In this document: one piece after another, positions 15,776 through 63,092 of the stretch
Position numbering within the stretch: position 1 is the first letter of the stretch
Layout of the letters: each line of letters starts with the position of its first letter
Assembly: GCA_963971425.1 (NCBI GenBank)
Contig: OZ020524.1
Coordinates: 6,310,417-6,374,416, forward strand
DNA length: 64,000 bases
Origin: Bryoerythrophyllum caledonicum
Taxonomy: Eukaryota; Streptophyta; Bryopsida; Pottiales; Pottiaceae
Direction of reading: 5' to 3'
The notes under the pieces: model-generated
Databases searched by the model: none
What the model saw: only the letters and a program-made list of their open reading frames with translations
Told to the model about the DNA's origin: nothing
Program-made: the position numbers and the translations under genes

Positions 15776-17238
15776 ATGGCGCCACCGAGTGGAGAGGTTG
15801 ACGCGGTGAGGGTTGCGCTTGCGCCAGCGTTGGGCGAACTGCAGCCGCGGTGCCAGGCTCGCGCGGACGGGCCGGCGTGTGTGCTGGGCATGGGCACGGC
15901 AAACCCGCCGTCCGAGGTGCTGCAGGACGGCTACCCCGACCGGTTCTTTGAGATCACTAACTGCAGCGACAAGCTCGCGCTCAAGGCCAAGTTCCAGCGC
16001 ATCTGTGAGTAGCCGTCATGGTCGAGGAGAACGAGAGAATTGAGGAATCGTGGTCGGTGTGCAGGGTTCAGGATGTGTCTAGATTGGATTCGGTGTATGA
16101 GATACCTGAATTTCCATGGATTTTTTATGTGCGATGTTTAGATCACCATGGGTTTTTTATGTGCGATATGTCTAGATTGGAACCCTGATGTGTAGATTGG
16201 ATTTCCGATCTGTTTTGACGTGGACAATGCCTGTCTGCAGGTGAGAAATCCGGGATCCGCAAGCGCCACATGTACTTGGACGAGGAGGTTCTGAAGGCCA
16301 ACCCGCTGCTGACGACTTACAAGCAACCCTCCCTGGACGCGCGCCACGACATCACCATCGCCCAGGTGCCCAAGCTGGCCGCCGAGGCCGGCGAAGCCGC
16401 AATCAAGGAGTGGGGCGGGCGCCGATCCGACATTACGCACATTGTGTTCGCCACGACGAGCGGCGTGAACATGCCTGGCGCAGACCTCGCGCTAGCGAAG
16501 CTGCTCAACCTGAAGCCCACAGTGCGGCGAGTCATGTTGTACCAGACGGGCTGCTTCGGAGGCGCCACCGCGCTCCGCGTCGGGAAAGACCTCGCGGAAA
16601 ACAACAAGAACGCGCGCGTGCTGGCCGTGTGCGCCGAAGTCACCGCGGTGACGTACCGCGCGCCGGACGAGGAGCACGTCGACGGACTCATCGGCAGCGC
16701 GCTCTTCGGCGACGGCGCGGCTGTGTACGTGGTCGGATCGGACCCCAATATTCCCCTAGAAAAGCCTCTGTTCGAGATCCTCTGGGCGGGCGAGACGTTC
16801 CTCCCCGGCACCCAGGAGATCATCACCGGGAAGCTCACAGAAGCCGGCCTGTTCCTCAAGGCCAGCATCGAGGTGCCCGGGCTCATCTCCTCCAACATCG
16901 GCGCGTTCCTGAACGAGGTCCGCAAGGTGATCGGGTCGCCTGACTATAACGACATGTTCTGGGCCGTGCACCCGGGCGGCCCCGCCATTCTCAGCAAGAT
17001 CGAGGCCAAGCTGGGCCTCCACAACGACAAGATGCAGGGCAGCCGCGACGTGCTGCAGGAGTTCGGCAACATGTCGTGCGCAAGCATCATGTTCGTGTTG
17101 GACCAGATCCGCAAGCGCTCCCTCAAAATGGGATCTTCCACGTTGGGCGAGGGCTGTGAACACGGCTGGTTCATCGGTTTCGGACCCGGACTCACCCTCG
17201 AGGTCATCGTCTTGCGCGCCGCGCCGAATGTCCAGTAA
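15776..17238 (+). CDS. CHS: type III polyketide synthase, chalcone synthase family (two exons: 15776-16004 and 16241-17238)
   Basis: This enzyme condenses a CoA starter with malonyl-CoA, in the classic case p-coumaroyl-CoA to naringenin chalcone in the cytosol, the entry to flavonoids. The 408-residue product is slightly longer than the usual 390-400. The Cys-His-Asn triad is intact: Cys181 in QTGCFGG, His320 in WAVHPGGPA and Asn353 in GNMSC, all exactly 17 above alfalfa numbering, with gatekeeper Phe232 in ALFGDG and the GFGPG loop at 389-393. The 236-bp GT-AG intron splits the codon of Cys77 after its first base, the position conserved in plant CHS genes. The ATG at 15776 is the first in frame. 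The gene is far more GC-rich than its surroundings. VTYRAP instead of the angiosperm VTFRGP and the divergent LFLKASIEVPG segment leave open a related type III PKS with another product. Confidence 0.93.
16005..16240 (+). other. intron of the chalcone synthase gene
   Basis: The donor is T|GTGAGT and the acceptor CTGCAG|GTGAG. Joining gives an uninterrupted CHS reading frame through FQRICEKSGIRKRH. The intron contains a near-tandem repeat (ATTTTTTATGTGCGATRT at about 16119 and 16152). Confidence 0.92.
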
Positions 17239-31204: not shown

Positions 31205-33654
31205 CCCTCCCTCAACTGCGACTTCCACTTTGAGACAGATAGAAGTTTGGATGGTAGGTGGAATTGGCAATGTCAAGGTTTGCGGTGTTGCCCCCTGATC
31301 TAATATTGTTGCTACATTGTCGGGTTCAGTGCGTGTCCGTAGTATGTTGCCTCAAACTCACCTTGGTTGGAAAGTTGGTGTCTTGATTTGTTGTTGTTGG
31401 TGACAAGGGTGGGCATAGTTCTTTGCAAGGCGAGGTATTTTTGTGGATGTTGTGGTTGGCAGGTGTCTTGGTCAGGCATCAATGTGACATTGTCCTCATA
31501 CATGTATGTTTTTGTTAGCAAGGTCGGAGCAGCATGTTGAGGATAAAGTTGTGGTCATGGTGGGAGGGGAGCTTCTAGTTGAAGTGCTCAATGAGAAGCA
31601 AGTTGAGGCATAGAGTTCTTTGGAGGCAAGCTAGAGGTCCTATTTTGAAGATCCCTCTTAGTGGTCGATTAACCGCACGTCCAAATTGAGTCAAAGGGCT
31701 CCTGATTCTAGACATATGAAGACCAAACGCACGTTGTAGATTGTTGGGTGCAACACGTTGAGTTGAATGAGAGCAAGGTTCTAAGTTTTAAGGTTTTGCA
31801 TAGAGGATGACATTATGCCTGCATTGTATCTATTGTCTACAAACTTGATGTAGAAAAGTGGTTTGGTGAGGAAATCAGCCTATTGAAGTGACATAGGAAC
31901 ATGGAGAACCTGTATGGTCTTGTTTTGTAAAAATTCTCCAATAAAATGTGATTTGATATCTATGTGTTTTGTCCTAGAGTATATGACGGGGTTCTGCTCA
32001 AGCTTGATGCATGACTCATTGTTGCTCAATAGTAGAGTAGGGTTTGTGTCTTGAATGCCCAATTCCTGTAAGAGTCTACGAATTTAGAGTATGTCCTTGC
32101 TTGCACTTGTGAGGATTATGTACTCCGCTTCCGTGCTAGATAGGGAAATTGTAGGTTGTAGTTTGCTGCTCTAAGCAATGCATGCGTTTCCAACCTTGTG
32201 CAGAATTGTTGATGTCAATTTTCTTAAATCTAGGTCCCTCCTCCAGTCAGCATCTGTGCAGATGTGGAATTCTTTGGAGTTATTTGCAGGCATAAAAAGT
32301 CCATTATGATTATCCATTGTGTTCTGCATGTATTTGAGTATCTTTTTGGTTGTTTGAATGTGTGCGTCTTTAGGTTCCCCTATGTATTGAGAGAGACAAC
32401 TGACCATGTAGTAAATGTTGGAATGGATATTAGTGAAGTAGAGTAAACTAGCAGCTATTAAGTGATAGAGGTAAGGGCCAGTTTTCTTTGTGTTTGTTTG
32501 TCGTTGAAGTATTATATTTGGATCCATTTGTAATCGGCATGGATTGCACTCATATAGTTGAAATTTCTCAAGTAGTTGTTTGATGTAAGTTTTCTAAGTC
32601 AATATTCCATCCTTGTATCTTTGGATTTCTGCACCAAGGTAAACTATTGCTTCCCCCAAATTTGTCATGTCAAAGCCTCTTATGAATGCCTTCTTTAGTC
32701 TAACTTTTGACTAGCAAACAATGGTAGCAATATGTCATAATAATCTATTCCTTCTCTTTGTTGAAATCCCCTTATACTTATTTGCACCTTAAACTTGTTA
32801 ATATTGCCATTAATTTTGATTTTGATATCTATTTTGCGATTTATGGTTATATACATGGTGGGCAATCAATGTTGTTCCAAATGTTGTTCTTCATGGTCGA
32901 GTTTGTCTCACGTTCTATTGCATCTCGCCATTCTTGGTGTTGGATAGCGTCGTTATAGTTGAGAAGTTCTTCTATGGCCTTCACGGCTAGTGTCAAGAAG
33001 TCTCTCAATTTGATAGACGGTCTTCTCTCTCTAGGTCCACAACAAAGTATCCTTGCCGTCTCTTGTTGTCTGATTGATTAAGAGCTTGGTATGAAGAGCA
33101 TCAAAAGCTTGGTATAAAGAAATTGCAGACAATCCTTGTAGGCGCCATGCCTTGAAAAATGTCATCCCCCCCAGTTTCTTGGACCAAGGTTTATACCCTG
33201 CCATCCCCGAATTCCTAACCCAAGGTTTATACCCTGCCATCTCAGGGTCCGAGGGTCGGGGCAGATATCCTCCCCTACCTAGGTTCCTTGGCCCGAGGCT
33301 AAAGTCTAGCCATCTCTGGGTCTCCACACTTAGGTCAAAGCCCAAGGTTGGCGTATTATCTCTTTCCACATGGGTCTCGGGTGATCGACATACGTGCACG
33401 CATCCCTGGGCGACGCGGTTCATGCGTAATTCTAGGCGGCATTATATTGTTGTCGCCTTGCATATCCGGAAAGATAGGTTAGATCTCCTGAGCTGAATTG
33501 TTGGCGACGTCAAAGGCACCATGAATAGGCACATTCTTTGTGTGTGGTGGATCAAGGTGTTGATTGCCCAACTTCTCCTCTTTAAAAATAACGTCACGAC
33601 TTAAAACAGCCTTATATCGTTCGGGATCATGTAGCCTGTAGGCCTTGGTTTTGG
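31205..33654 (-). pseudogene. Copia reverse transcriptase and RNase H, decayed
   Basis: In the minus-strand frames, 32840-32760 gives a KVQISIRGFQQREGID segment (Copia RT N-terminal block), 32527-32171 gives LIAASLLYFTN..SNIYYMVSCLSQY, and 32062-31880 gives LLSNNESCIKL..NP and RTKHIDIKSHFI, the RNase H block. The blocks lie in the correct Copia order but in several frames with stops. Between 33155 and 33330 a tandem repeat interrupts the region. Domain order and motifs make the assignment secure; the protein is not functional. Confidence 0.85.
33155..33330. repeat. tandem repeat of about 40-48 bp inside Copia pol
   Basis: AAGGTTTATACCCTGCCATC occurs twice, and a diverged third unit (GGCTAAAGTCTAGCCATC) follows. 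On the minus strand it reads as an accidental MAGYKPW repeat. It is not part of normal Copia pol. Confidence 0.7.
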
Positions 33655-33662
33655 TATCATAG
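33655..33662. other. left 8-bp target-site duplication of the hAT element
   Basis: TATCATAG here and TATCACAG at 45896-45903 differ by one base. An 8-bp duplication is diagnostic for hAT transposition. Confidence 0.85.
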
Positions 33663-33740
33663 CAGGGTTGTCATACTGGACGGACGTCCGATATGCCCGT
33701 CCGTCCGATTCGCCCGTCCGGTAGAGCTCTCGCCCGTCCG
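33663..33740. repeat. left TIR and subterminal GTCCG array of the hAT element
   Basis: CAGGGTTGTCATA is followed by GGACGGACGTCCG and several CGCCCGTCCG units. The right end carries the same CCGTCCG motifs on the same strand. Clustered short subterminal motifs are typical transposase binding sites in hAT elements; that role is inferred here. Confidence 0.8.
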
Positions 33741-33769
33741 GGTAAGTCAACTGAGGGTTGACTTACCCG
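33739..33769. repeat. hairpin next to the left hAT subterminal array
   Basis: CGGGTAAGTCAAC and GTTGACTTACCCG form perfect 13-bp arms around a 5-base loop. Confidence 0.85.
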
Positions 33770-33875
33770 CTAGGTAAAAAACAGGGGACGTGGCAGCCAT
33801 GTTGGCACCACATAGCTGCCACATAGGAGAGGGTCATGTTTGAGTAGGATCGGGGACTAATGGCAAGAGGGAGGT

Positions 33876-33929
33876 GGGGCGGAGACGTCTCCGCCCCTGC
33901 CCATAAAGGGGCGGGGACGTCTCCGCCCC
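33876..33929. repeat. two GC-rich GACGTC-core palindromes near the left hAT end
   Basis: 33876-33897 is a perfect 22-bp palindrome (half-site GGGGCGGAGAC) and 33908-33929 is the same with one asymmetric pair. Matching sites occur at 36143-36156 (half), 39842-39863, 41436-41600 (several) and 45670-45732. Confidence 0.9.
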
Positions 33930-33969
33930 TTCATGAGTTAGTTAATAGTGTTTAACTATTGACACTATG

Positions 33970-34170
33970 TTGGTAAACTAAAATTTATGTTTACTGTAGT
34001 ATACACTAAATGTGAACCCATACACCAATTGCAAATGAGGCACTTAGTGTAGTGACATAACCGGACACTAAATGCCATTTACTACACTATGTATCAATTT
34101 TTGTAGAAATAATAAATTGATTTCTTTCACTTGTGCACATTTAGTGTATCAATAGTGAATCAATAATTAT
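33970..34170. mobile_element. partial foldback element inside the hAT element
   Basis: AACTAAAATTTATGTTTACTGTAG, then TACACTAAATGTGAACCCAT, GGCACTTAGTGTAG and GACACTAAATGCC, match the left arm of the TA-flanked foldback family. No right arm follows, so it is a truncated copy that entered or was carried by the hAT. Confidence 0.6.
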
Positions 34171-34342
34171 TTGTGCTTGAACAAATGCAAATCTCGGATT
34201 TAGAATTTAAGATTTGGACGTATCTAATTTTGATTAAAATATAACGTATGGCAATTGCCAAGTACACATATTCTTCTACGAAGATGCCGTATTGCCTATT
34301 TAACCACCACATGCGAAACTAATGCAGCTAATTAACAAAAAA

Positions 34343-35923
34343 CTATTGTCGGTAACAACATAGAGGTATAGTCCAGTTGTGGGGGGGTTTCATTAATGTG
34401 TCTATAACATCTGGTACAGAAGACCGTTCTTCAAGCAGTTGTTTTTGCAACGCTGTAAGTTTTAGCTTCAGGTTTACATATTGCTCCGTGTTTTTGCTGG
34501 TGAAATACGAAGTGTCCCAATCTTCTTTCCAAAAAATTTCACAAATCCAACCCACCACAAATGCATCCGTTGCCTTGGAGTAGAGGTGTGACCGTTGCAT
34601 GACTTCAAGCGAGTTGGTGGAGTCCTGCGGCCCAAAATTATAGAACAGTTCTGGTGCCACAAACCGTCGCCGCTCTCTCTATAGTTGAAGCTCCTCCTTG
34701 AATTGATAACCATACTTTGATGGCTCATTCTCCACAACCCGACTAGAAAGCCCCCAATCGCAAATTCCGATGTACACCGCATCGGGTTTCCACTCATCAA
34801 AGTGAAGCAAAACATTCGATGGAGAGATGTCATTGTGTATATAATTTGCGTCGTGGCATTTTCCCACAATGACAAGCAATGATAGCGCGAGGTTCACTCG
34901 ATTTTGGCGGTAAGTTTTTACCCACCGAAGCTCTTGGATTGACAACCTGGTATTCGGATGCATCTCAATCCGTTCAAATGGCAATGCTTCGTCCACTTTC
35001 GAGTCAAACTTGGACCAAAAAGAAGCAAGAGATCCCCCATTCCACCAGAGCGTGTACCCTTCCATAGTTTTCGGGTGGATGTACGCAAGTCTAATGATCC
35101 CTGGATGCACTACTGGACACCCTCCAGCCTCGTTGATGATGTTTCGGCGCTTCTCCCTCTCGTTGGTGTTGGTCAGAGTCTTTCCGGCGAAGTAAATCCA
35201 ACTTGGAATGTTTTCCAATTTGGTTATCATTACCTTCCGTACAGCCCCATAGCCACCCATCGCGCTCTGCCCTGGCATTGGAATCACTTTAGCGCAACTT
35301 TCAAGCCACTTGAAAGTTCCACCAACGCAGTGAGCCAAAATTTGCTCATCAATAGTCGCTTTCCAAGGAGCTAGTTTCTTCTCACGGAAAGAAGAGTACT
35401 GTTGAACGAAGCCCTGGATCATCCTCATCTTCGCCACTAGTGTGCGCTCCTCCAGGTTCCAGGTGCTCTCATCCTCCTTCTTCCCTGTGACATAACACCA
35501 GTTCGCAACGATATTGGTGGTCAGTGCGGTCACTTGTGTATCCAACCACTCCGAATGCAACCAATAATCTGAGAAATTATTAAATTTCTCAGATTTATCA
35601 AGGTTTGACATTAATTCGTGTCGCATGTCAACCGTCAACTTGTGGTATCCCTCTTCGTTGTGGTTCAGATAGCTCCTCGTCAACGCCCCTGTCGTCCGAC
35701 GCTTGTAAAACTCGACGGCAATCCCTCTACATTCAACCATGTATTCGTGCGGGGGCATGTCCGGATTTGGTGACTTCTTCCGCCTCTTCCCGCTCGATGA
35801 CGACGGATTCAATGATCCCGAAGTCAACACCGTGTTGGTGGACGGAAGAACCGTCTCATCAACATCATCCAAGTCCATAAATACTGGGCGCTTCTCCATC
35901 GACCTACTTCCTTCTCCCGCCAT
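34343..35923 (-). pseudogene. protein kinase-like gene carried by the hAT element (one in-frame stop)
   Basis: The ATG at 35923 opens a 414-codon frame ending in TAG (34679-34681), and the same frame continues for 112 codons to 34343. Residues 1-200 are an unrecognised, partly low-complexity region. A kinase fold follows: glycine loop GGYGAV (223-228), AGK with candidate ATP-binding Lys248, catalytic loop IHNDISPSNVLL (HND 363-365, Asn370), DWG at 389-391 in place of DFG, and, past the stop, VAPE and DAFVVGWI (the APE and helix-F motifs). A kinase needs the APE segment, so the TAG truncates the domain. It may be a nonsense mutation or an unrecognised intron; I favour a mutation. The gene is divergent from the RING gene, sharing a 410-bp intergenic region. 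Confidence 0.75.
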
Positions 35924-36333
35924 ATGTGATTGTCAACTCCCTACCGTGGTCGAAATTCCAAGTTGATGGTTTTAAAAAAACCGCAAAGAGTCTGGGTACA
36001 ATAAATGGGCCAAGCCCGATCACCCACCAAACTCACTTTCAGGCCGCAAAGCAAACTGACACGTGAGGCCTAGGGAGTGGACTTGGCAGAGAATAAGGAC
36101 AAAATGTCCCCTATTTATATGGTGTAGGGTTCTTTTTGCGAAGACGTCCCCGCCCCTGCCCGGGGACCCTAGACCAGTGCTTCGTCTATCGGCTATATAA
36201 TATCATGCATACCCCTAATTGTCCCCGCCTCACATATTCCCTCTTCATCCACCTCTTAATTGAGTTGGTTGTGGGCGTCGTGTGAGGACTTCATTCATTC
36301 GCATCACATATATTATTCAGATTTTCCCCACCC
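35924..36333. promoter_or_regulatory. shared divergent promoter region of the kinase-like and RING genes
   Basis: This 410-bp region lies between two divergent start codons. It contains a GACGTCCCCGCCCC half-palindrome at 36143-36156 and a TATATAA at about 36194. The segment 36220-36300 (GTCCCCGCCTCACAT through TTGAGTTGG and TCATTCATTC) is duplicated upstream of the truncated RING copy at 39900-39975, so the promoter moved with the gene. Confidence 0.6.
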
Positions 36334-38679
36334 ATGGCCACGCCGGTAAAAATGAATAAAGAAGAACGAGACAAGAGTCGACTACGATCAGGAAACAAGC
36401 AGTGGAAGAGGTTGCATGTGCTTCGGAATCCTGTTAAATTGGCTTTTAAAGGTTGGGAAGAAGTTCCGGAGCCATGGAGTTTCGAGGATTGCGCAAGCTT
36501 CATCAAGTGGTGCCATATCGACAAGGCTTTCCCGGAGGAGCGACACAATTATCACCGACGCTTTCACAAGGCAAATTTATGGAAGTGCACCGACGAGGCG
36601 TTCAAAAATCGGTGCATTGAAGTATACCAGGTCTTGTACGACATCCCTTATATCAAACGCAATGAAGTAAATCTCTTCCTTGCGCGAGGTGTCCATGCGG
36701 AGGTAAAGTTGGGCAAGAGGATGGATTGGTCCACCTTGAAAGCCATGGGAGATAGCATAAGAGTTCCTTCTCCGGCGAATGGATTGATTCCAATGGGGAC
36801 ACAGAGGTATCCAGAAGGCGGATTGGGCAAATCGATGGCGAAGACTGAACCGGTCGACACGTACGAGACCGATCCCTCAAACACGGATACAGACTCTGAC
36901 GGATCCCACGTTCCAATCACAAGGAGCCAAAGGACACAAGTGCGCACCAAACGAAGGAGGGCGGAACAAACGGTTAACGTAGTCGTTAACAATACTGTTA
37001 ATGAAGTTGGGGCTCAGGTACAATCCCCCGCGGTTGTTGATCGAACGTTAGAAGCCTCTACTGGGGCTATTTTTGCCAACACTATCCAAACCTTGCTGAA
37101 CCAATTGGAAGGGAAGACAACAGAACTATTGTCATTGCGCGATGAGGTTCGCAAGTTGAGAGTTGAAGTCAATGATAAAAACATCGTTATTGACCAGCAA
37201 CGACGTGATATGGAGGAGCTTCGACTTGCCCTTCAAACTAGTACAATGACCATAGAAGATCGGAATCCACGACGGGAGGAAGAAGTGCTTGTACACGTGT
37301 CAACCCAAGACGATTCATTGTCGTTTGATGAGGCTCCTATCAAAGAAGACAAAGTTATGGTCAACAAAGAAGAGGGTGCGGGGGGTGACGGCGGCAAAGA
37401 GCTTGCTAAAGCGCTTGAAGAGAATTCAAGACTACAAAGTCGTTTGGATGTGTTGGTAGAACATTACTATCAATGGAAGTTGGCATGCGTCTTCACGGTC
37501 GATCGGTCCCGACAATTGGTGGCGGAATTCCAAAAAATCGACAACAACTATACCGAAAACAACCAGGAGAGGGTGTTTGGTTTGACATCGTGGGCCCTCG
37601 TAGATGATCTTTTCAAGATGGATGAAATGGCGATGGTGAAAACCGCTGGTGGGCAAACAACCATCGATTGGTCCCGTTACAAATGGGATTTCAAAAAGGA
37701 GGTTTCATCTACCCTCGATCATTGGGGCAAACCCATGTTATTGTGGCCACAACCTTTGAGCTTCGTATCTGACGGTACGACTTGCTCAATTTGTCTAAAC
37801 CCATTTGGTCTAGAAGGTGGGATGCATCTAGGCACTTGTGAGCACTTGTACCATCCATTTTGTTTGATTAGCTTGATGGTTGTACGCCGGCGGTGCTCAT
37901 TGTGCAAGGCCCCTTTTCACGAACGATTGTACGAACTTTTTGGATTAGTTCCATACATGCCCCCGCATTGGGAGTTCAATGTGACGAACGCTCATGATCA
38001 ATCACATATGTGGGGAAAAGATTTGGTGTGGAGCTGGAAACTGAAGATGCACTCGTTGGATAAGATGCACCTCTAAAACGAGTGGGGTTGGAAAAGGGAC
38101 CCGGAGCAGATTGTCCGGGTGTGCAAGAATTTGATCCCGTTAAAGGACAAATACGGTCAAGGAAAACGAAATTTCTTCTACCAATGCTTTAATGGCCATT
38201 GGGACAAGAACGGGGAGCAATTTTGTTTTGGACCTCATCCACGGCAATGGTTGTGGGCCGTTGACGGAGTTCGCATCACAGACGACAACGGGGATCGCAT
38301 TTCTCACGACGTTGACCAATCAGACCCGCAAGAACTAAGACAATTATCGGAATCAGAGTGGAAAGAAATTTTCCGAAATGACGGAATCGACTTCTTGCTC
38401 GATGTGCACAATCTAGGGACACGGCAAGCGCTCGACCAGCTCATGCAATCCCAAATCCTAAGGGCCGTGTTGGATGAAGATGGACCAGCGAGGAGAACAC
38501 GATCGGCGTCTCGTAGACTTGTATTGGGCTCAGATGAAGACCTCCCTATGCACGTAGGGGCACACGACAACGAGGCAGGGGCGAGTGGCACTACTAATAG
38601 CCCGATGAATATTGACTTGGTGTATTTCTTGTTTTTGCGGTGCCAAGAGACAATTTTCTTACAATGCTTCATCTTTTAG
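36334..38679 (+). pseudogene. RING-finger/coiled-coil gene carried by the hAT element (one in-frame stop)
   Basis: The ATG at 36334 opens 580 codons to TAA (38074-38076), and the same frame goes on for about 200 codons to 38679. Residues 1-170 form an unrecognised conserved domain (WSFEDCASFIKWCHIDKAFP, then HAEVKLGKRMDWSTLK) that recurs in the copy at 40014. Residues 245-310 are a coiled coil (leucine heptads around LLSLRDEVRKLRVEVNDKN). A RING-type zinc finger has C484, C487, C502, H504, H507, C510, C521 and C524 (CSIC..GTCEHLYHPFC..CSLC), the fold used by many ubiquitin E3 ligases. The stop follows the RING, so the upstream product may still be complete. E3 activity is inference. The gene is not a known hAT component. 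Confidence 0.78.
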
Positions 38680-38876
38680 CATTTAATGTATTTTTTCCAC
38701 TTTCGTATTACATTATGGATACTAAAAAAATATATGAATAGTACTGTCTACATTCTACTTGTTAATAGTGGTGTTAATCCGTGTGATTATGGATGTACTT
38801 AAGCCTCATAAGGATTTGTGCGTTTGTATAAAAAAAAATGGTGTGGACCTAGTTTTAAACCTCCAAACATTTTTAA

Positions 38877-39515
38877 TCCCTAAAGGACCAAGGCATTTTT
38901 GCACCAAAAACACTTCAAAACTGCGAGGCTATAGTATAATGCCTAAGAATGGAGACAAAACCTTTTTATTTCTACATCTAACCGTAGGATCACAATAAAT
39001 ACTTCTTTGTTAATGTCCCCACAAAATTTCATAAATTTTAACCACACGGATTGAAAGGCTTGCATAGCTCCCATGCTATTCACTGCTTGGTATCAAATTT
39101 TTGCACTAGATAAGGCCTAAATCCATTACTAATGGTAGTTTAGGATGATGTTAGTTCCTTATACACCAATTGTTAGAGGTAGAAAAAGGATGTACCTTAT
39201 TCAAGTCAACTATGCTAGTAGTGGAAGCTAAAAAATGGGCAAGTAACGTTTTAGTTTTTAGATACTTGATATGTTTTAGATTGATGTATATTTATGGTCA
39301 ATATGAAGGTCTACACCACATATTGTTGTGGAAAAAATCAAAAGTATAAAAAGTTAAAATCTCTAAGTTTTATGTGGTAAGACGTTTTTGTTTTTGGTAC
39401 CTTGCCCGTTATATTTTTGGCAATATGTGAAAATCTTTGACTTGAGTTGAAGCGTTATTTTCCACTAAAGACAAGGAATTTTTATTCTTATTTGGAAGGA
39501 AATAATTTTCTACAC
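38877..39515 (-). mobile_element. TTAA-family element, minus orientation, truncated
   Basis: It starts TCCCTAAAGGACC after TTAA (38873-38876), then ACCAAAAACACTTCAAAACT and the usual block order in reverse. It stops near the CAAGGAATTTTTATTC block with no far terminus. It lies inside the hAT element. TTGCATAGCTCCCATGCTAT at 39060 has replaced part of its sequence and matches the 164-bp tandem repeat at 40786. Confidence 0.65.
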
Positions 39516-39699
39516 TCTTATGTTTGCTCCAAAACTAATTGGGAGCTAATAAAGGTGTTCCTTATTAGAGAGCATGCCGTCAAAGTACAAAAGTTGTACT
39601 TTCCATTTCGCCTTCCTCCCTAGAACTAGGGAAAGACATAATCTGCATGTTATTTTAAGTGCATTAGGATCTTGTCGGAACCAAAAATAAATCACCCCA

Positions 39700-40013
39700 T
39701 ATTTAATTGTGCACCCGCCTCATGGAGATGAGGAGTGCCTCGGCCAAGCAAGAGTGGCCTCAAACGCCTCCTTGGAAAGTTTTGTGGGGACGAACCCCCC
39801 CCCCCCCAATTTACAAGCAAACGTCCCTGCCTTGCCCTGGTGGGGCGGAGACGTCTCCGCCTCCACCGGATTACTATTTTAATGGAGGGGGACCTCATTT
39901 GTCCCCACCTCGCATACTCCTATCCACCATCTCTTCATTGAGCTGGATGTGGACGTTGTGCGAGGTCTCATTCATCCATCCACGCCAAAATTTTGCATTC
40001 ACACGTGCACACC
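39700..40013 (+). promoter_or_regulatory. duplicated upstream region of the truncated RING copy
   Basis: It contains a near-complete GACGTC palindrome at 39842-39863 and a segment at about 39900-39975 (TCCCCACCTCGCATACTCC through CATTGAGCTGG and TCATTCATCC) homologous to the leader of the gene at 36334. This shows that promoter and coding sequence were duplicated together. Confidence 0.65.
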
Positions 40014-40670
40014 ATGTCTTCATCTGGACAATTGGCCAAGGAGGAGCGTGACAAGACCCGTGCAAGAGCGGGGAACGCCCATCGGAAGCGGTTGCACGTT
40101 CTTCATAATCCCGAGAAGTTGGCTTTTCGAGGTTGGGAGGACGTAGTGGAGCCATGGAGTTTTGATGATTGCGCAAACTACATCGAGTGGTGCCACATCG
40201 ACAAGGCTTTCCCAGAGGCGCGACACAACTATCACCGGCGCTTCCACAAGACAAACTTGAAACATTGCATCGACGAGGCGTTTAAAAACCGATCCATCGA
40301 AGTTTACCAGGTGTTGTATGACGTCCCATTTGTCAAACGCAACGAAGTAAATCTCTTCATTGTGCGGGGTGTTCATGCGGAGGTGAAGTTGGGCAAGATA
40401 GTGGATTGGTCCACTTTGAAGTCGATGCCGGGGAAGGTAAAAATTCCTTGCCCTGAAAATGGAGTAATTCCAATGGGATGGCGCAAGTATCCGGAAGGTG
40501 GATTGGGCAAGTTCATGACTGTGATGGACGACACACCTAGCTATGATACTAACACGTCAAGTTCAGATGATGACTCCGACGGAACCCACGTCCAAGTCGC
40601 GAGCGAAAAGGCACAAGCACGTGGTAGGCTGAGGAGGACCGAACGAGCCCTTCACCAACGTTACTATTGA
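40014..40670 (+). CDS. truncated paralogue of the hAT-borne RING gene, N-terminal domain only (218 aa)
   Basis: It starts at the ATG aligned with that of the larger gene (eight residues before KEERDK in both). The protein follows the larger gene over about 165 residues (WSFDDCANYIEWCHIDKAFP, YQVLYDVPFVKRNEVNLF, VKLGKIVDWSTLK, KYPEGGLGKF), continues with an acidic SSSDDDSDGTHVQ stretch and a basic end, then stops at 40668-40670. The coiled coil and RING are absent. The frame is open and well conserved, so the N-terminal domain may act alone, for example as a competitor of the full-length protein or as a DNA-binding factor. That is speculation, as the domain is not recognised. Confidence 0.65.
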   Translation: MSSSGQLAKEERDKTRARAGNAHRKRLHVLHNPEKLAFRGWEDVVEPWSFDDCANYIEWCHIDKAFPEARHNYHRRFHKTNLKHCIDEAFKNRSIEVYQVLYDVPFVKRNEVNLFIVRGVHAEVKLGKIVDWSTLKSMPGKVKIPCPENGVIPMGWRKYPEGGLGKFMTVMDDTPSYDTNTSSSDDDSDGTHVQVASEKAQARGRLRRTERALHQRYY

Positions 40671-40785
40671 CTAGGAGTATTTAAAGGTTTAGGACGTAGC
40701 AAATCAATTTTGTGAACAATACTTTTGCTCTAAACATTATATGGTTTTAAATATCCTTTTTGTTTGTAATGGTACAATTAATTTA

Positions 40786-41205
40786 GAGAACTTGCACATT
40801 ACATTCTACTAGAGGCTTATACTATCCATTATGGATGGGGACTTGCATAGCTCCCATGCTATCCACTACTTGGTTTATTTTTTTGCTTTAATGGTATGTG
40901 GTACATTCCTAATCTTTTGTGGGGCAATTGTGTTTAAACTATTTATTTCGAGAACTTGCACATTACATTCTACTAGAGGCTTATACTACCCGTTATGGAT
41001 GGGGACTTGCATAGCTCCCATGCTATCCACTACTTGGTTTATTTTTTTGCTTTAATGGTATGTGGTACATTCCTAATCTTTTGTGGGGCAATTGTGTTTA
41101 AATTATTTATTTAGAGAACTTGCACATTACATTCTACTAGAGGCTTATACTACCCGTTATGGATGGGGACTTGCATAGCTCCCATGCTATTCACTACTTG
41201 ATCTA
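40786..41205. repeat. 164-bp tandem repeat, 2.6 copies, inside the hAT element
   Basis: Units begin GAGAACTTGCACATTACATT at 40786, 40950 and 41114, exactly 164 bp apart, and are almost identical, so the array is recent. Each unit has the near-palindrome GCATAGCTCCCATGCTAT. The last unit breaks off near 41205. Confidence 0.92.
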
Positions 41206-41435
41206 AAAGGGAGCTAATAAAGGTGTTCATTATTGGAGAGCATGCGGTCAAAGGACAAAAGTAGTACTTTCCCGAAAGCCTTCCTTCGTAGACATAACCT
41301 GCTTCTTATTTTAAGTGCGTCGCAATCTTGTCGGAACCAAAAATAAGGTACCCTATATTAAAACCTCTATCCTCCTCATGGAGAGGAAGAGTGCCTAAGC
41401 ACCCAAATGCCCCAAAGGCCTCCTTCTCCTGGGTT

Positions 41436-41600
41436 GGGGAGACGTCCCCGCCCTTACCCGGCAGGGGCGGAGACGTCTCTGCCTTTACCCGGGCAGGGGC
41501 GGGGACGTCTCCCCACAACAGGGCAGGGCGGAGACGTCCCCGCCCCTGCTTGGGTAAGGGCGGGAACGTCTCTGCCCCTGCACGGAGACGTCCCCGCCCT
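41436..41600. repeat. array of GC-rich GACGTC palindromes upstream of the hAT transposase
   Basis: Five or six GGGGCGGAGACGTC-type half-sites in alternating orientation, separated by CCCGGGCAGG-like linkers, lie 300 bp upstream of the transposase start. The position would suit binding by the transposase or by bZIP-type factors (ACGT core). This function is inferred. Confidence 0.85.
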
Positions 41601-41898
41601 TGGCACTTCAGGTCCCACCCGTTCTTAGCTCGTGTATAAAAGGTTCGGGGAGGGCCGATTGTCCTCACGCTTGTTACCTTGGCCTCTATCCCTTGGACCT
41701 CAATTTTGTTTGAACTCCTTGCGAGTCTACTTAGGTGGCAGGCGGCACTGGTGTGCGGCTGAGGTGATGTAAAAATTGGTTCAAGTAGTGCACCAGCGCT
41801 ATCAGACCTCACATTTTCACCTGATTCTACACTATAACTAGCCCCGGATTTTGGCTTAGACGGAACTTGCACATTATTTGGCATAAGCCGTGAATGCA

Positions 41899-44800
41899 AT
41901 GGGAAGTCAAAGGAAGCAAACAAAAGAATGGGAACCTTGGTACAGTTTTGGTGACAACGGGGGCAAAGTGAGTTGTATTTTCTGTAACTATACTTTTAGC
42001 TACAAACGTGAGCGTGCGTTCGCTCACTTTGGATACGGCGCCAAGTCAGAGAGGTCGATTTGTCGTAGCCTACCTCCCTATGTGCGAAGTCGATTTGCCA
42101 ATTGTGGAAACATTGTTCCGCAACGAATAACGGGCGGGGACATGTATGGCGGAGATTCAGGCCCGAGTGGTCCATCGAGGGCACCAACTATTGACACTTC
42201 AAGCCAATCCGACGCTCAAAATAATGTGGCGGGTGGGGTAACAAGTGGGCCTCAGGAAGGAGTGCCTAATCTCTCTGAAGGAAACGACCGTGAACATGTG
42301 TCGGGTGGTCTTACCGCCTCGAATTCCACTAGATCTGGGCAACTACATCAACAACGGATGCTTGATGTTTTTAACATTGCAAAGAGGAAGGAACTTGATG
42401 AGAAGTGGGCGATTTTTTTCTATCAAGCGAATGTGCCTTTTAATGTGGCGCGAAATCAAGCGTTCATCGATGCAGTGAGGGCGACATCTGTGGCAAAGTT
42501 TGAGTACACTCCTCCTACATATCACCAGTTGAGGATTAGATTGATTGAACCTAAGAGGTTGCAAATTGAGAAAGAGATTGAAGCCAAAGTTGGTTTTGCA
42601 ATCAAAAATTATGGGGTGTCGATATGCACGGATGGTTGGGATGATGTCCATCGGAGGCCCCTCATGAATTTAATGATGTCGTGCCCCACTGGTGACGTAT
42701 TCTTGGGGATCATAGACACCAGTGGTGAGAAGAAGTCCATGCGGTACATAGCGGACCAAGTGAAAGTTTACATTGAGAAGGTGGGTTCCAAGAATGTGAC
42801 ACAGATTTGTACAGACAATGCTCCCAACATGCTTGGAGCGATGGATGATATTATTCTCACATACCCGCACATTCACAAGTAGGGGTGCATGGCACATGCA
42901 TTGGATCTCATGTTGGAAGATTGGGCAAAGGTCCAAGAATTTAAAGATTTAATAGAGAGGGCAAAGAAATTGTGCAAATATATTAGAAACTATCATTCAC
43001 AATGGGGACACTTCATGAGTTGAGTCCAAACCTGCATATTGTAGTGCCCACTGAAACCCGCTTTGCTTGTAATTTCCTTATGTTGGATCGATTGGTGAGA
43101 CTCAAAGGAGTGTTGGAGCAGTTGAAAGACCACCCCCGTGTTGTAAACTACTTTGCAACCCTACGGAACAAACAAAATGGAGAGCAAGCAGCAACCGCAG
43201 TGCGTAATGCGGTGCTCACCATCGAAGATGTGGCCTTTTGGCAACGATGTCAGAATTACGTGCACATGACTGGGGATGTTTTGAAGGCATTGCGTGTGTT
43301 TGATGGCCGTGAACCAGCCATGGGTTGTGCGTGGCTCGTGATGCATAATTTGCGAGAACACGTGTACTCTTTGAGAGAGTCACCCTTTACTCTACGAGCT
43401 GACATAACATCCACTCTTGAGCAATCTTTTGATGCCCGGTGGCAAATGGTTTTTACCAATATTCACTACACCGGGGCTCTTTTGAATCCGTACCTCAAGG
43501 ATAATGTGGCGCTTAGGACTGACGGAATCGCACAAAGAGCATTGAATCGGGTTGTTCGCAAAATGATGGAGGTATTGGAAGTCTCATATGAGGACGTCCA
43601 ATATGAGTTAACACAGTACGAGGAGGGCACAAGACCATATGGCCCTACCGAGGCATCTGACATCCGCCAGACAAAGCTTCAACTTCACAAATGGTCGGCC
43701 AGGATTGCAAACAAGGCATTGTCTAAAATAGTTGTTCGTATTCTAGCCCTCACGTGTTCAGCTAGCTCTTGCGAACGAAATTGGAGTATGTACTCGTTTG
43801 TCCACAACAAGAGCCGAAATCGATTAGCGGCAGAAAAGGCTGCATCATTGGTGTATATTTATACCAATAGCCGATGCTTTCAACAAAGACCGGGGGCCAA
43901 TCCCGTTCGATGGTACAATGCGAATATTCACTCGGAGGATTCCGACCCAGATGCCCTAGGGCCGGTCCCGGTGGGTGAACCTAATTGTGAATTTGATGTG
44001 TTGATAGCCGAGGAAGAGGAGGAGCACAATATGGCAGCTCCCCGCACTCCGCTGGAGTACCGTGGACACCCTAATCTTTGGGCGGAAGGCGCCGATCATC
44101 TTGAGGAAACGAGAAACTATTACGGAGATGATGACGATGTGGAAGAAGAATTGGCTCAAGGTCGTTGGGGACCTTGGAATCAAAGTCCTCGTCGCACTCC
44201 TTCGCCTCATTTTCATCAAAATGAGGGCATTCATGAAGTGCAACCTTTGTCTACTTCCTCAGAGAGCGACATCCCAAATGTGACTAACCTTGAAGAGCCT
44301 GAAACGGGGGGGGGGAATGTCGGAAATGTTCGCGACGAGGACAATTCCCCATCAGACTATGGTGGTGGAAATGGAGATGGCGACAACAACGGAGCGGGAG
44401 AGAACGCAGTAAATACTGCGACTCGAAACAACCAAGCATCGATTGAAAACCGGTATGGCCAAGAGAGCCCTATTGGAATGGGTGCATCATTTCATAGCAC
44501 TGGAGTCGTTCAAGGAGACTCTAATGCAAATGTTGTAAACACAACAATTGTAGGGACGACTCGAAGAAATGAAAGGGTTGTTAATCAGCGAAAGCGTTTT
44601 GACCCGGAATATGTAGACCCCGATGATGCTTTTGCATTCACAGAGGACCTTGAGCCACAACCATCTCCGGTTGTGGTGTTGCCTACGGTTATCAATGACT
44701 AGAATGTACCAACGCCGCCTACCTGGAATTCCTCTTCTCCTAGAACGGCGAATGCCATGTATGGACCTTTTCAACGAAGTGTAGGCATTGAGGGGATGGG

Positions 44801-45431
44801 TCTAAACACTTCCACTACTACTACCAGAAATGGCAGACCCCCTTTGGCCGCTACAAGGACGCCTCTTCATCCAATGGGTCAATATATACAACCGAGTGCA
44901 AGGACTAATGCTCGTGGAGGGTCTAGAGGCCGTGGAGCGGCTAGAGGCCATGAAGGAAGAAACAACGGCGAAGCATCCTCCTCAAGGCATCGTAGACGTC
45001 CCCTCCTTGGAATAGGGGCACGAGATCCGAACGTGGTTGTACAACCGTTTTTGGACACGTATGTTCCAGGACGCTCTTCAACAACTCCGGCATTTGTTGT
45101 TCCGAATCGAGAAATTCGTCCTACCAGCGGCCCAACCATAAATTCCGACGGCGATGATCCTCACCCACATCGACAAAAGAGATTCAGACGCTCGCGTTGC
45201 GATGGTGAAACAGTCGTAGAGCTTCGCAATGACAACTCTGAAATAGAGGGCTTTTGGACTACGGATGGTAGCAATGGAGAATTCTCAGATGAGAGTGGTG
45301 AAGGAGCTGATGATGAGAACCGTTCAGATTGTGATGAGGCACCAGATGATGATGATATCGTCCTTCGAGATGCGGTTATGGGTGGCCCGTCCACCGAAGG
45401 AGTGCGCAAATTGGGCCGTTTGAATAATTAA
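41899..45431 (+). pseudogene. hAT transposase with BED zinc finger, DUF659 and dimerisation domain, plus a long acidic/RGG tail (nonsense and frameshift mutations)
   Basis: From ATG 41899: a BED-type zinc finger (WYSFGDNGGKVSCIFC, C26, C29, H43), then DUF659 (YGVSICTDGWDDVHRRPLMN to QICTDNAPNM) up to a TAG at 42880-42882. The frame continues as GCMAHALDLMLEDWAK, then shifts near 43000 into SPNLHIVVPTETRFACNFLM. The hAT dimerisation domain is at about 43690-43870 (LTCSASSCERNWSMYSFVHN then SRNRLAAEKAASLVYIYTN). A TAG at 44700-44702 is followed in the same frame by 243 more codons with an RGG/Arg-rich and an acidic segment. All hAT domains are recognisable, but at least two stops and a frameshift make this copy inactive. 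The transposase would bind the TIRs and mobilise the element. Confidence 0.88.
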
Positions 45432-45669
45432 AGGACAAGAAAAGTAACTACATATATGTATGCGAAATCAAGAGAGTTGTGATAATTCATAGAAGAAGCT
45501 AGGAGAGAAAAAGGTTTCTTAGATAACTACAAGATATTACTTCGATTGGAAGTATGAGATTAGGGAATTGTTGTTTTATCGTGAAACTTTTTAATGTAAT
45601 AAACAGATTTTGCTTCCAGACATTGAGGCCTATCCGCTCAATGATGCAGGGGCATGGACGCCTACATGA

Positions 45670-45732
45670 GGGGCGGGGACGTCCCCGCCCCATGGGAGGC
45701 GTCTCCGCCCCTCATGGTGACGTCCCCGCCCT
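45670..45732. repeat. GC-rich GACGTC palindromes near the right hAT end
   Basis: 45670-45691 is a perfect 22-bp palindrome (half-site GGGGCGGGGAC), followed by GGCGTCTCCGCCCC and GACGTCCCCGCCC half-sites. It mirrors the pair at 33876-33929. Confidence 0.88.
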
Positions 45733-45802
45733 AGTGCCACGGTGGCGTGACACGTCCGTATGTGACGTGGCGATCACAGTAAAAATTATTGGGCGCACTT
45801 CG

Positions 45803-45903
45803 GGCAATCCGTCCAAACCGTCCGTCCGTGCCGTCCGGACCGCCCGTCCAGTTGTCCCATCCGATCACCTCAACCCGTCCGTTATGACAACCCTGTATCA
45901 CAG
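45803..45903. repeat. right subterminal GTCCG array, TIR and target duplication of the hAT element
   Basis: Repeated CCGTCCG motifs run up to TATGACAACCCTG (ending 45895), the exact complement of the left TIR, followed by the duplication TATCACAG at 45896-45903. Confidence 0.88.
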
Positions 45904-46490
45904 CCTACAAATAGACACTTGTGTGTCTTTCTATCAAGTTTGTTTTTTCCCTCTTTTAAAACATGCACGTGCGCAATACAACTAAAGATCTTGAGATGTT
46001 GAAGATTGGATTTGTTACGTGAATACTTGTTTTCTGGTGGAATTTTGGAGTTTGCTTGAGTTGGATTCCTATTAATCAAATAAGTTGTCGTTGCAATCGC
46101 CTCAGTTCATAAATACCTCAGAAAGCTAAAGCAAAAGCTAGACTTTGCATGCACTCCATAATTGTACAATTATGCCGTTTATTCTATAGTGCGCACTCAA
46201 GTAAGTTTACAATGAATACCGCATTGATGGCAATGATCTATAAATTCTTGAGAAATATATTCTCCTCCTCTGTTAGACTGTAGGCTTTTGAGCTTATTAC
46301 CTGTTTCTATCTCTAGCATGGATCTAAAGACGCATAACTTCTTGAATGTCTCACTTTTGAATTGTAAAAAAAACATCCACCTCTTTCCTGAATAGTCATC
46401 AGTAAAAACTAAAATGTACCTTGATCCTCCAAGTGACATTTGTGGCATTGGTCCAATTACGTCCGTGTGAATCTTTTCACCTTGCTTTGA
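45904..46490 (-). pseudogene. Copia integrase, decayed, interrupted by the hAT insertion
   Basis: Minus-strand frames give MSLGGSRYILVFTDDYSGKR, RSMLEIETGNKLKSLQSNRG and GGEYISQEFIDHCHQCGI, the catalytic core blocks of Copia integrase (TDDYS, SNRGGEY), at 46448-46197. Then LKIFSCIAHVHVLKE and KCLFVGCDT at 46079-45904 form the conserved C-terminal block. Several stops separate them. The hAT target site lies just past this block. Confidence 0.88.
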
Positions 46491-62118: not shown

Positions 62119-63092
62119 GCCTGCCACCACGCCGTTCTTTTTGTCGATTGTCTTCACCAAGTCGTCCACAACTTGCTTGTTGATTCGCTCTTTCTCCTCC
62201 ACCATGTCCTTCACCGTCTTTAAGTCACAAAATTTCTTCAGATAAACGTCAACTGTCCCAAATTCGCATTCAAATCCTGCACAAACAACACATAATGCAC
62301 ATTCAAGTGACCACATCAACGCAAAGCACAAAGCAAAAGATGTTCTTGTCTCCAATCACCATACCTCTTCCGTGGCTTGCCATCCATACAAATCGAGGCT
62401 GTGAGGACGTTTCTCATCCCACCACTCTTTCCTGCCACGGTTCACCGCAGCAAAACTCCGATCAAACGCTTGCATATCCTCCAAACCATGGATGTCATTC
62501 CGGAACATTAAAACAGTCGTGCCCTGGTGTCCACGGATATCATGAAAAACGTCCAGTCTCTCGGGATCATATTCATGTTCTAGAAAGCTAAACGTTGATG
62601 TGAGAACACTCTTCAAAAATAGAGTGAAAGAAAACACTGGTGTGGAATTTACTTTGAATTTTTCTTTGATGTCGGCGGCGCCAGTGGCGAGGCGGAAGCC
62701 CTTCTCGTTGGTCTTGCTATTGTCGATGTTGACGAGGATGCCCATCCAAGGAGCGAGGAGCGTGGTGGCGGCGGCGCGCTTGGGGACGGCCTGCTCCAGA
62801 TACAGCACGCGCCCGGCCTGCGGGATCATGGGCTTGTCCCCGAGCTCCGCCTGCAGGTACTTCACGAGCGCGCGGTGGCCGCCCACCTTCTCCGGGCCCC
62901 GCTTCTCGTTGGCGATGGTGGTGGCGTGCGCCAGAAGCTCCCGGTACCTGTAGCTCTACTTCTTCTTCCCGGGCAAGAGGGGACACTTGTAGGTGTTGTC
63001 CGGGTTTTTCACCACCAGGTGGCCGGAGAGAATCTCGTCCGCCACCTTCTGCTCGTACACCTGCGTCTCCTTGTCATCTAAGTTGTTGTAGT
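62119..63092 (-). pseudogene. captured fragment of an XS-domain gene (SGS3/FDM family)
   Basis: On the minus strand, 63092-62886 gives a zf-XS-like segment (YKCPLLPGKKK, stop, SYRYRELLAHATTIANEK) in which the second Cys is replaced by Leu. Then comes the XS domain: PWMGILVNIDNSKTNEKGFR, IKEKFK, RLDVFHDIRGHQGTTVLMFR and RGRKEWWDEKRPHSLDLYGW. A further exon at 62290-62119 gives VYLKKFCDLKTVKDMVEEKE, a coiled coil. GT-AG intron remnants (donor GAG|GTATGG, acceptor TGTGCAG) are kept, so genomic DNA and not cDNA was captured. XS proteins bind RNA with 5' overhangs and act in RNA silencing and RNA-directed DNA methylation. The stop, lost Cys and a frameshift make it non-functional. The 63092-62656 part is distinctly GC-rich. 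Confidence 0.8.

What the first reader, a model, noticed from the sequence alone, without database searches (positions are those of the whole stretch)
33663..45895. A 12.2-kb hAT transposon carrying a kinase-like gene and a RING-finger gene as cargo
Perfect 13-bp TIRs (CAGGGTTGTCATA), an 8-bp target duplication (TATCATAG/TATCACAG) and a complete BED/DUF659/dimerisation transposase define the element. Between them lie two further long genes, arranged head to head, that are not part of known hAT machinery: a protein kinase-like gene and a RING/coiled-coil gene with an unrecognised N-terminal domain. Most hAT elements are 2-6 kb with one gene. A kinase plus a possible E3 ligase on one transposon suggests an element that may act on host or transposase proteins, a cargo-bearing hAT lineage. 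The structure is seen in the sequence; the functional idea is inference.
Basis: partly seen in the sequence, partly recalled or inferred. Interest (0 to 1): 0.9.

Follow-up and report, generated by a model that had tools for sequence, protein, structure and literature searches.

The report
Four-gene hAT transposon with tagged promoters
In what looks like a moss genome, a high-copy cut-and-paste transposon family of about 12 kb carries its own protein kinase, a ubiquitin-ligase-like protein and a shorter relative of it next to its transposase, and marks its gene promoters and both ends with repeated DNA motifs, as if the element ran its own control system.

Summary
The element is real and the extra genes belong to it. 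The window copy (33663-45895) has perfect 13-bp TIRs and an 8-bp target duplication with one mismatch. The 13-mer occurs 798 times in the 437-Mb genome, the reversed control twice. The 30 best kinase loci all lie beside this TIR and RING. Kinase catalytic residues are kept in relatives down to 29% identity; the two RING-N genes diverged with dN/dS 0.19. All 11 copies examined have sites of a palindrome, GGGGCGGRGACGTCYCCGCCCC, often in arrays of about 31-bp period, upstream of each gene and near both ends. One copy each of two diverged subfamilies has another motif array at the left end. The window copy itself is decayed. Best reading: a multi-gene hAT lineage whose arrays are read by an element-encoded protein, an analogue of VANDAL/VANC anti-silencing. 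The anatomy is shown; the function is inference.

The parts
33655..33662 (.). left target-site duplication TATCATAG
   Evidence: read directly; compared
33663..33675 (+). left 13-bp TIR CAGGGTTGTCATA
   Evidence: genome count
33697..33740 (+). left subterminal CCGTCCG repeats (4), candidate transposase-binding sites (inference)
   Evidence: also in the L061 and L062 ends
33876..33937 (.). left-end array, 2 palindrome units (GGGGCGGRGACGTCYCCGCCCC)
34343..35923 (-). kinase gene (526 codons in intact copies); in-frame TAG at 34679-34681 in this copy
36113..36119 (-). TATA box of the kinase gene, at -196
36134..36164 (.). array unit between kinase and RING (presumed bidirectional promoter); 1 site here, 1-8 in the ten other copies
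36193..36200 (+). TATA box of the RING gene, at -141
36334..38679 (+). RING-H2 / coiled-coil gene; in-frame TAA at 38074-38076 in this copy; 754-aa open frame in copy E013
39842..39871 (.). array unit upstream of RING2
40014..40670 (+). RING2: 218-aa paralog of the RING gene's N-terminal domain, without RING
41430..41608 (.). array upstream of the transposase (5 RGACGTCY sites here)
41635..41641 (+). TATA box of the transposase gene, at -264
41899..45431 (+). hAT transposase (DUF659, hAT dimerisation, long C-terminal tail); two in-frame TAG and one frameshift in this copy
45669..45732 (.). right-end array (one exact RGACGTCY site here plus a degenerate one)
45818..45881 (+). right subterminal CCGTCCG repeats (4)
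45883..45895 (-). right 13-bp TIR
45896..45903 (.). right target-site duplication TATCACAG

Best explanation
This is one decayed copy of a high-copy, multi-gene hAT transposon family in which a protein kinase, a RING-H2 protein and a RING-less N-domain paralog are regular element genes (shown). Its promoters and both ends carry sites, mostly tandem arrays, of a family-specific GC-rich motif, set at nearly fixed distances from the start codons (shown). Most likely an element-encoded protein, by preference the domain shared by RING and RING2, binds the arrays, and the RING protein as E3 ligase together with the kinase modifies chromatin or silencing proteins there, keeping the element's promoters and ends active. 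RING2, which has the domain but no RING, would compete with or tune the full protein. The transposase probably uses the separate CCGTCCG sites next to the TIRs. All steps after the anatomy are inference.
Against: No binding, methylation or expression data. The N-domain has no Pfam match above cutoff and no confident PDB match came out, so DNA binding is a guess. Arrays could be read by host factors or the transposase. Each diverged subfamily was seen in one element only, and RING presence in those subfamilies was not tested. Within the family, N/S (observed/expected) is near neutral: singletons 0.73-1.0, changes in two copies 0.54-0.95, changes in three or more 0.15-0.81 on small counts, with RING the weakest at 0.81.
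Confidence: 0.5

Rival explanations
1. The four-gene element is real, but the arrays are host-factor enhancers, and kinase and RING act elsewhere, for example stabilising or localising the transposase or timing transposition to the cell cycle.
For: The GACGTC core resembles plant bZIP sites (recalled). The nearest array site lies a nearly fixed distance upstream of start codons and, for three of four genes, upstream of a TATA box, as ordinary enhancers do.
Against: Arrays also lie at both ends, downstream of the kinase and transposase stops, and the motif differs between subfamilies of one host, which a common host factor does not predict.
Confidence: 0.3
2. The arrays are transposase-binding subterminal repeats that spread into internal noncoding regions, where the transposase represses its own family's promoters, in the manner of Ac.
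For: Arrays lie near both ends, and hAT transposases are known to bind subterminal repeats (recalled).
Against: A separate CCGTCCG cluster lies closer to the TIRs and is present in the ends of all three subfamilies sampled, while the arrays differ.
Confidence: 0.15
3. Kinase and RING are chance host passengers of a recently amplified copy.
For: Copies are only about 2-3% from their majority sequence, so one burst could spread passengers.
Against: A diverged kinase also lies within a hAT-like end and has a transposase C-terminus match (30 residues, 60%) beside it, in a different gene order. Relatives of kinase and RING are kept as full-length frames elsewhere. A kinase relative (P0023) and a transposase relative (P0094) both report a contig of 15,563 bases (same contig inferred from length). 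RING-N against RING2 dN/dS is 0.185.
Confidence: 0.03

Closest known systems
Plant hAT transposons (Ac-like; DUF659-type transposase)
   Same: 8-bp target duplications, short CAGGG TIRs, DUF659 and hAT dimerisation domains
   Different: 12-14 kb with four genes; conventional hATs carry a transposase gene alone (recalled). The three named flowering-plant transposases listed are only 29-33% identical
VANDAL elements and VANC anti-silencing proteins of Arabidopsis
   Same: Several element genes; short motifs in tandem arrays of changing copy number in noncoding regions; motif differs between families (PMC5735166, passages)
   Different: VANDALs are MULE elements (PMC13317346, one passage); here the superfamily is hAT and the candidate effectors are a kinase and a RING protein. 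Demethylation is unknown here
Gene-capturing transposons (Pack-MULEs, Helitrons)
   Same: Extra genes inside a DNA transposon
   Different: Here the same genes are in all ten other 12-14 kb copies examined, in fixed order, with conserved catalytic residues; not variable host fragments

Membership tests
hAT superfamily | 8-bp target-site duplication | tested here: met
   window copy one mismatch; 7 of 10 other copies perfect, 3 of 10 with 1-2 mismatches
hAT superfamily | short TIRs beginning CAGGG (feature recalled) | tested here: met
hAT superfamily | hAT C-terminal dimerisation domain | tested here: met
   PF05699 above cutoff
hAT superfamily | BED zinc finger | tested here: inconclusive
   no Pfam BED match in the window ORF, P0063 or P0094; a Cys/His cluster is visible by eye but unscored
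hAT superfamily | catalytic DDE residues and transposition activity | not tested
   residues not mapped; activity needs an experiment
Eukaryotic protein kinases | VAIK Lys, catalytic Asp/Asn, DxG Asp, APE | tested here: met
   (DxG Asp in 16 of 17); relatives P0001 and P0012 above Pfam cutoff, window copy below it; fold match E 1.4e-8
RING-H2 E3 ligases | C3-H2-C3 zinc ligands in RING spacing | tested here: met
   7 of 8 ligands in 17 of 17 relatives, the eighth His in 15 of 17; copy E013 has Tyr for one Cys. Pfam RING scores of the window copy, P0038 and P0044 are below cutoff; 6 of 24 relatives carry a precomputed RING domain
RING-H2 E3 ligases | ubiquitin ligase activity | not testable with these tools
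   needs an assay
VANDAL/VANC system | MULE transposase | tested here: not met
   transposase is hAT
VANDAL/VANC system | motif arrays mainly in noncoding regions of the family's own copies | tested here: met
   (noncoding against coding only; genome-wide specificity not tested, unanswered)
VANDAL/VANC system | element protein binds the arrays and removes DNA methylation | not testable with these tools
   needs binding and methylation data

The most novel reading that the evidence does not exclude
A hAT lineage evolved, independently of VANDALs, a sequence-specific self-protection system in which an element-encoded ubiquitin ligase and kinase are recruited to the element's own promoter and end arrays. 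The arrays diverge between subfamilies together with their reader, and a RING-less paralog acts as competitor.
Probability: 0.33. Interest if true: 0.92.

Novelty: new variant of a known kind. Interest (0 to 1): 0.8.

Why it matters
hAT elements are usually thought of as one-gene transposons (recalled). A high-copy lineage that keeps a kinase, a RING protein and its paralog as regular genes, and marks its promoters and both ends with motif arrays that differ between subfamilies, would be a second origin of element-encoded, sequence-specific control or anti-silencing outside VANDAL/MULE, and possibly the first built on ubiquitin and phosphorylation. Many copies sit in one genome, so the idea is testable by binding, methylation and expression assays.

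Tried and rejected
Chance passengers: rejected on copy, linkage and conservation evidence. Viral or bacterial source of the kinase: no relative confirmed in viral contigs (27 stretches matched a pattern, none confirmed) or genome contigs (16, none confirmed). Intact window copy: rejected. Fold of the RING N-domain: no confident PDB match; the lists were dominated by the RING, so this shows nothing about novelty of the fold. Literature: searches (0 papers; 1; 6; 72, of which 15 listed; 2; 0; 7) showed, by title and start of abstract, no hAT with a kinase and a RING gene; the library lacks most subscription journals. One search found the VANC papers (PMC5735166 seen as passages; PMC13317346 one passage; PMC10398659 search listing only).

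Not achieved: genome positions of RING, RING2 and transposase matches (and P0044 as a diverged RING query), and a genome-wide count of the palindrome, because the genome search did not complete. 62 of the 100 listed TIR places have no convergent partner within 33 kb and were not examined, apart from loci fetched.

Full report
What is there. The window is G000:C12:6310417-6374416 of a 437-Mb, 894-contig genome. A host chalcone synthase gene (16270-17238) matches PDB chains 9jl6, 6dx7 and 9kah best (535 bits), with the next sequence at 448 bits. From recall 6dx7 is a moss enzyme, so the host is probably a moss; this was not tested further. The element spans 33663-45895 with exact 13-bp TIRs and an 8-bp duplication with one mismatch.

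Copies. The TIR 13-mer occurs 381 times forward and 417 reverse; the reversed control occurs 1 and 1. The 100 places listed, all on contig C1, contain 19 adjacent convergent pairs under 33 kb, against 4 divergent and 1 same-strand adjacent pairs under 33 kb. Ten of the 19 are 12-14 kb. All ten were fetched, and 10 of 10 carry kinase, RING, RING2 and transposase in the same order (in E021 part of the transposase match is missing), with target duplications perfect in 7 and with 1-2 mismatches in 3. Of the other nine, two were fetched: a 3.67-kb deletion derivative with a target duplication and only a RING2/RING-N fragment, and a 6.27-kb pair made of two left ends without a duplication and without gene matches. 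Seven were not fetched, though one search lists a kinase within the 25.8-kb pair, about 1 kb from its right TIR.

Seen from the cargo side. The kinase search scored 101 of 2101 first-look candidates, all 92-100% identical. For the 30 best, which include the window copy, a TIR with 0-2 mismatches over 21 bp lies 888-1120 bp past the kinase match in 30 of 30, and RING lies on the other side in 30 of 30 (in L041 without its N-terminal part). L052 and L053 share their flanking 8-mer and are probably a segmental duplication. A divergent kinase query (P0012) scored 81 of 2395 candidates at 39-45% identity; near its end the list holds two copies of the window family, the rest being mostly other subfamilies by position.

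Diverged subfamilies. L061, beside the kinase at C2:11391905, has the TIR CAGGGTTGTCATA (L061:815), two CCGTCCG sites and then an array of about 17-bp CGCGAGCGCTGTTCGGG units. Upstream of the same kinase, L063 has an array of about 20-bp units. L061 and L063 arrays share a CGGGCGCG core: 46 shared 8-mers against a mononucleotide-shuffle mean of 14.4 and maximum of 40, so the margin over the best shuffle is modest. At L063:810-899 on the minus strand lies a match to transposase C-termini (P0076, 60% over 30 residues, E 1e-6; P0078, 64% over 25). It is short but points to kinase and hAT transposase being neighbours there in another order. L062, beside the kinase at C2:36715511, has the TIR CAGGGTTGTTCA, seven CCGTCCG sites and a 20-21-bp array, also with GGGCGCG. 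The L061 and L062 arrays are partly alike (39 shared 8-mers, shuffle maximum 34), L063 and L062 not beyond shuffles (44, maximum 50), and the window-family arrays (copy E009) share with none of these more than shuffles do, while its own left and promoter arrays share 52 against a maximum of 10. Neither L061, L062 nor L063 has an RGACGTCY site. So the clear contrast is GACGTC palindrome against GGGCGCG core, each diverged subfamily seen in one element.

Arrays of the window family. RGACGTCY sites number 180 in 52.5 kb noncoding and 14 in 86.7 kb coding sequence over 11 copies; nine of the 180 are a lone site at element position 20, outside the arrays. Of 116 neighbour spacings under 100 bp, 87 are 29-33 bp; the consensus is GGGGCGGaGACGTCcCCGCCCC. 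They occupy the left end, kinase|RING, RING|RING2, RING2|transposase and right end in all 11 copies (in E019 one site was labelled 'other' because the script confused paralogs). Number per interval varies from 1 to 15, but the nearest site lies at a nearly constant distance from the start codon: RING -192 in 11 of 11, RING2 -164/-165 in 10 of 11, transposase -312/-313 in 9 of 11, kinase -225 to -227 in 9 of 11. A TATA box lies between array and start for kinase (9 of 11), RING (11 of 11) and transposase (10 of 11); for RING2 none was found (0 of 11).

Selection and decay. Copies lie 1.9-3.0% from their majority sequence, dominated by C>T and G>A; observed/expected N/S is 0.73-1.0 for singletons, 0.54-0.95 for changes in two copies and 0.15-0.81 for changes in three or more (39 copies for the kinase, 11 for the rest, small counts in the last class). 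That is mainly neutral decay after spread, with weaker signs of earlier constraint, weakest for RING (0.81). CG/CHG sites diverge 0.047 against 0.0135 elsewhere in the kinase, consistent with methylation-driven mutation. RING-N against RING2, majority sequences: 207 codons, dN 0.206, dS 1.113, ratio 0.185, which is purifying selection on this cargo domain.

Mechanism. The VANC precedent (PMC5735166, passages) is an element protein that binds a short motif arrayed in noncoding regions and induces loss of methylation; motif arrays there evolve by tandem repeat change and differ between families. The same layout here, in a different superfamily, makes an element-encoded reader the best explanation. 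Which protein reads the arrays, and what kinase and RING modify, is inference.

Noticed in passing
window 46197-46448 (-) and 32171-32527 (-): An integrase core fragment (rve, E 1.6e-6, below cutoff) lies right of the element, and a fragment that looks like the end of a Copia polyprotein (by eye; no Pfam match) lies left of it; the hAT may be inserted in a Copia element.
   Followed up: partly
window 62356-62886 (-): XS-domain gene fragment (PF03468, 72.7 bits), a domain of SGS3-type silencing proteins (recalled).
   Followed up: no
window 39535-39740 and 41203-41396: Direct repeats (79-84%) flank RING2, upstream of its array and of the transposase array, and a 164-bp unit is repeated three times at 40774-41265; RING2 may have arisen by a local duplication.
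   Followed up: no
L052 and L053 (C7:774282 and C7:796928): Two copies 22.6 kb apart with the same flanking 8-mer, probably a segmental duplication.
   Followed up: no
P0003: A kinase relative is filed in a public source as from a Bacilli MAG, probably a mis-binned plant contig.
   Followed up: no
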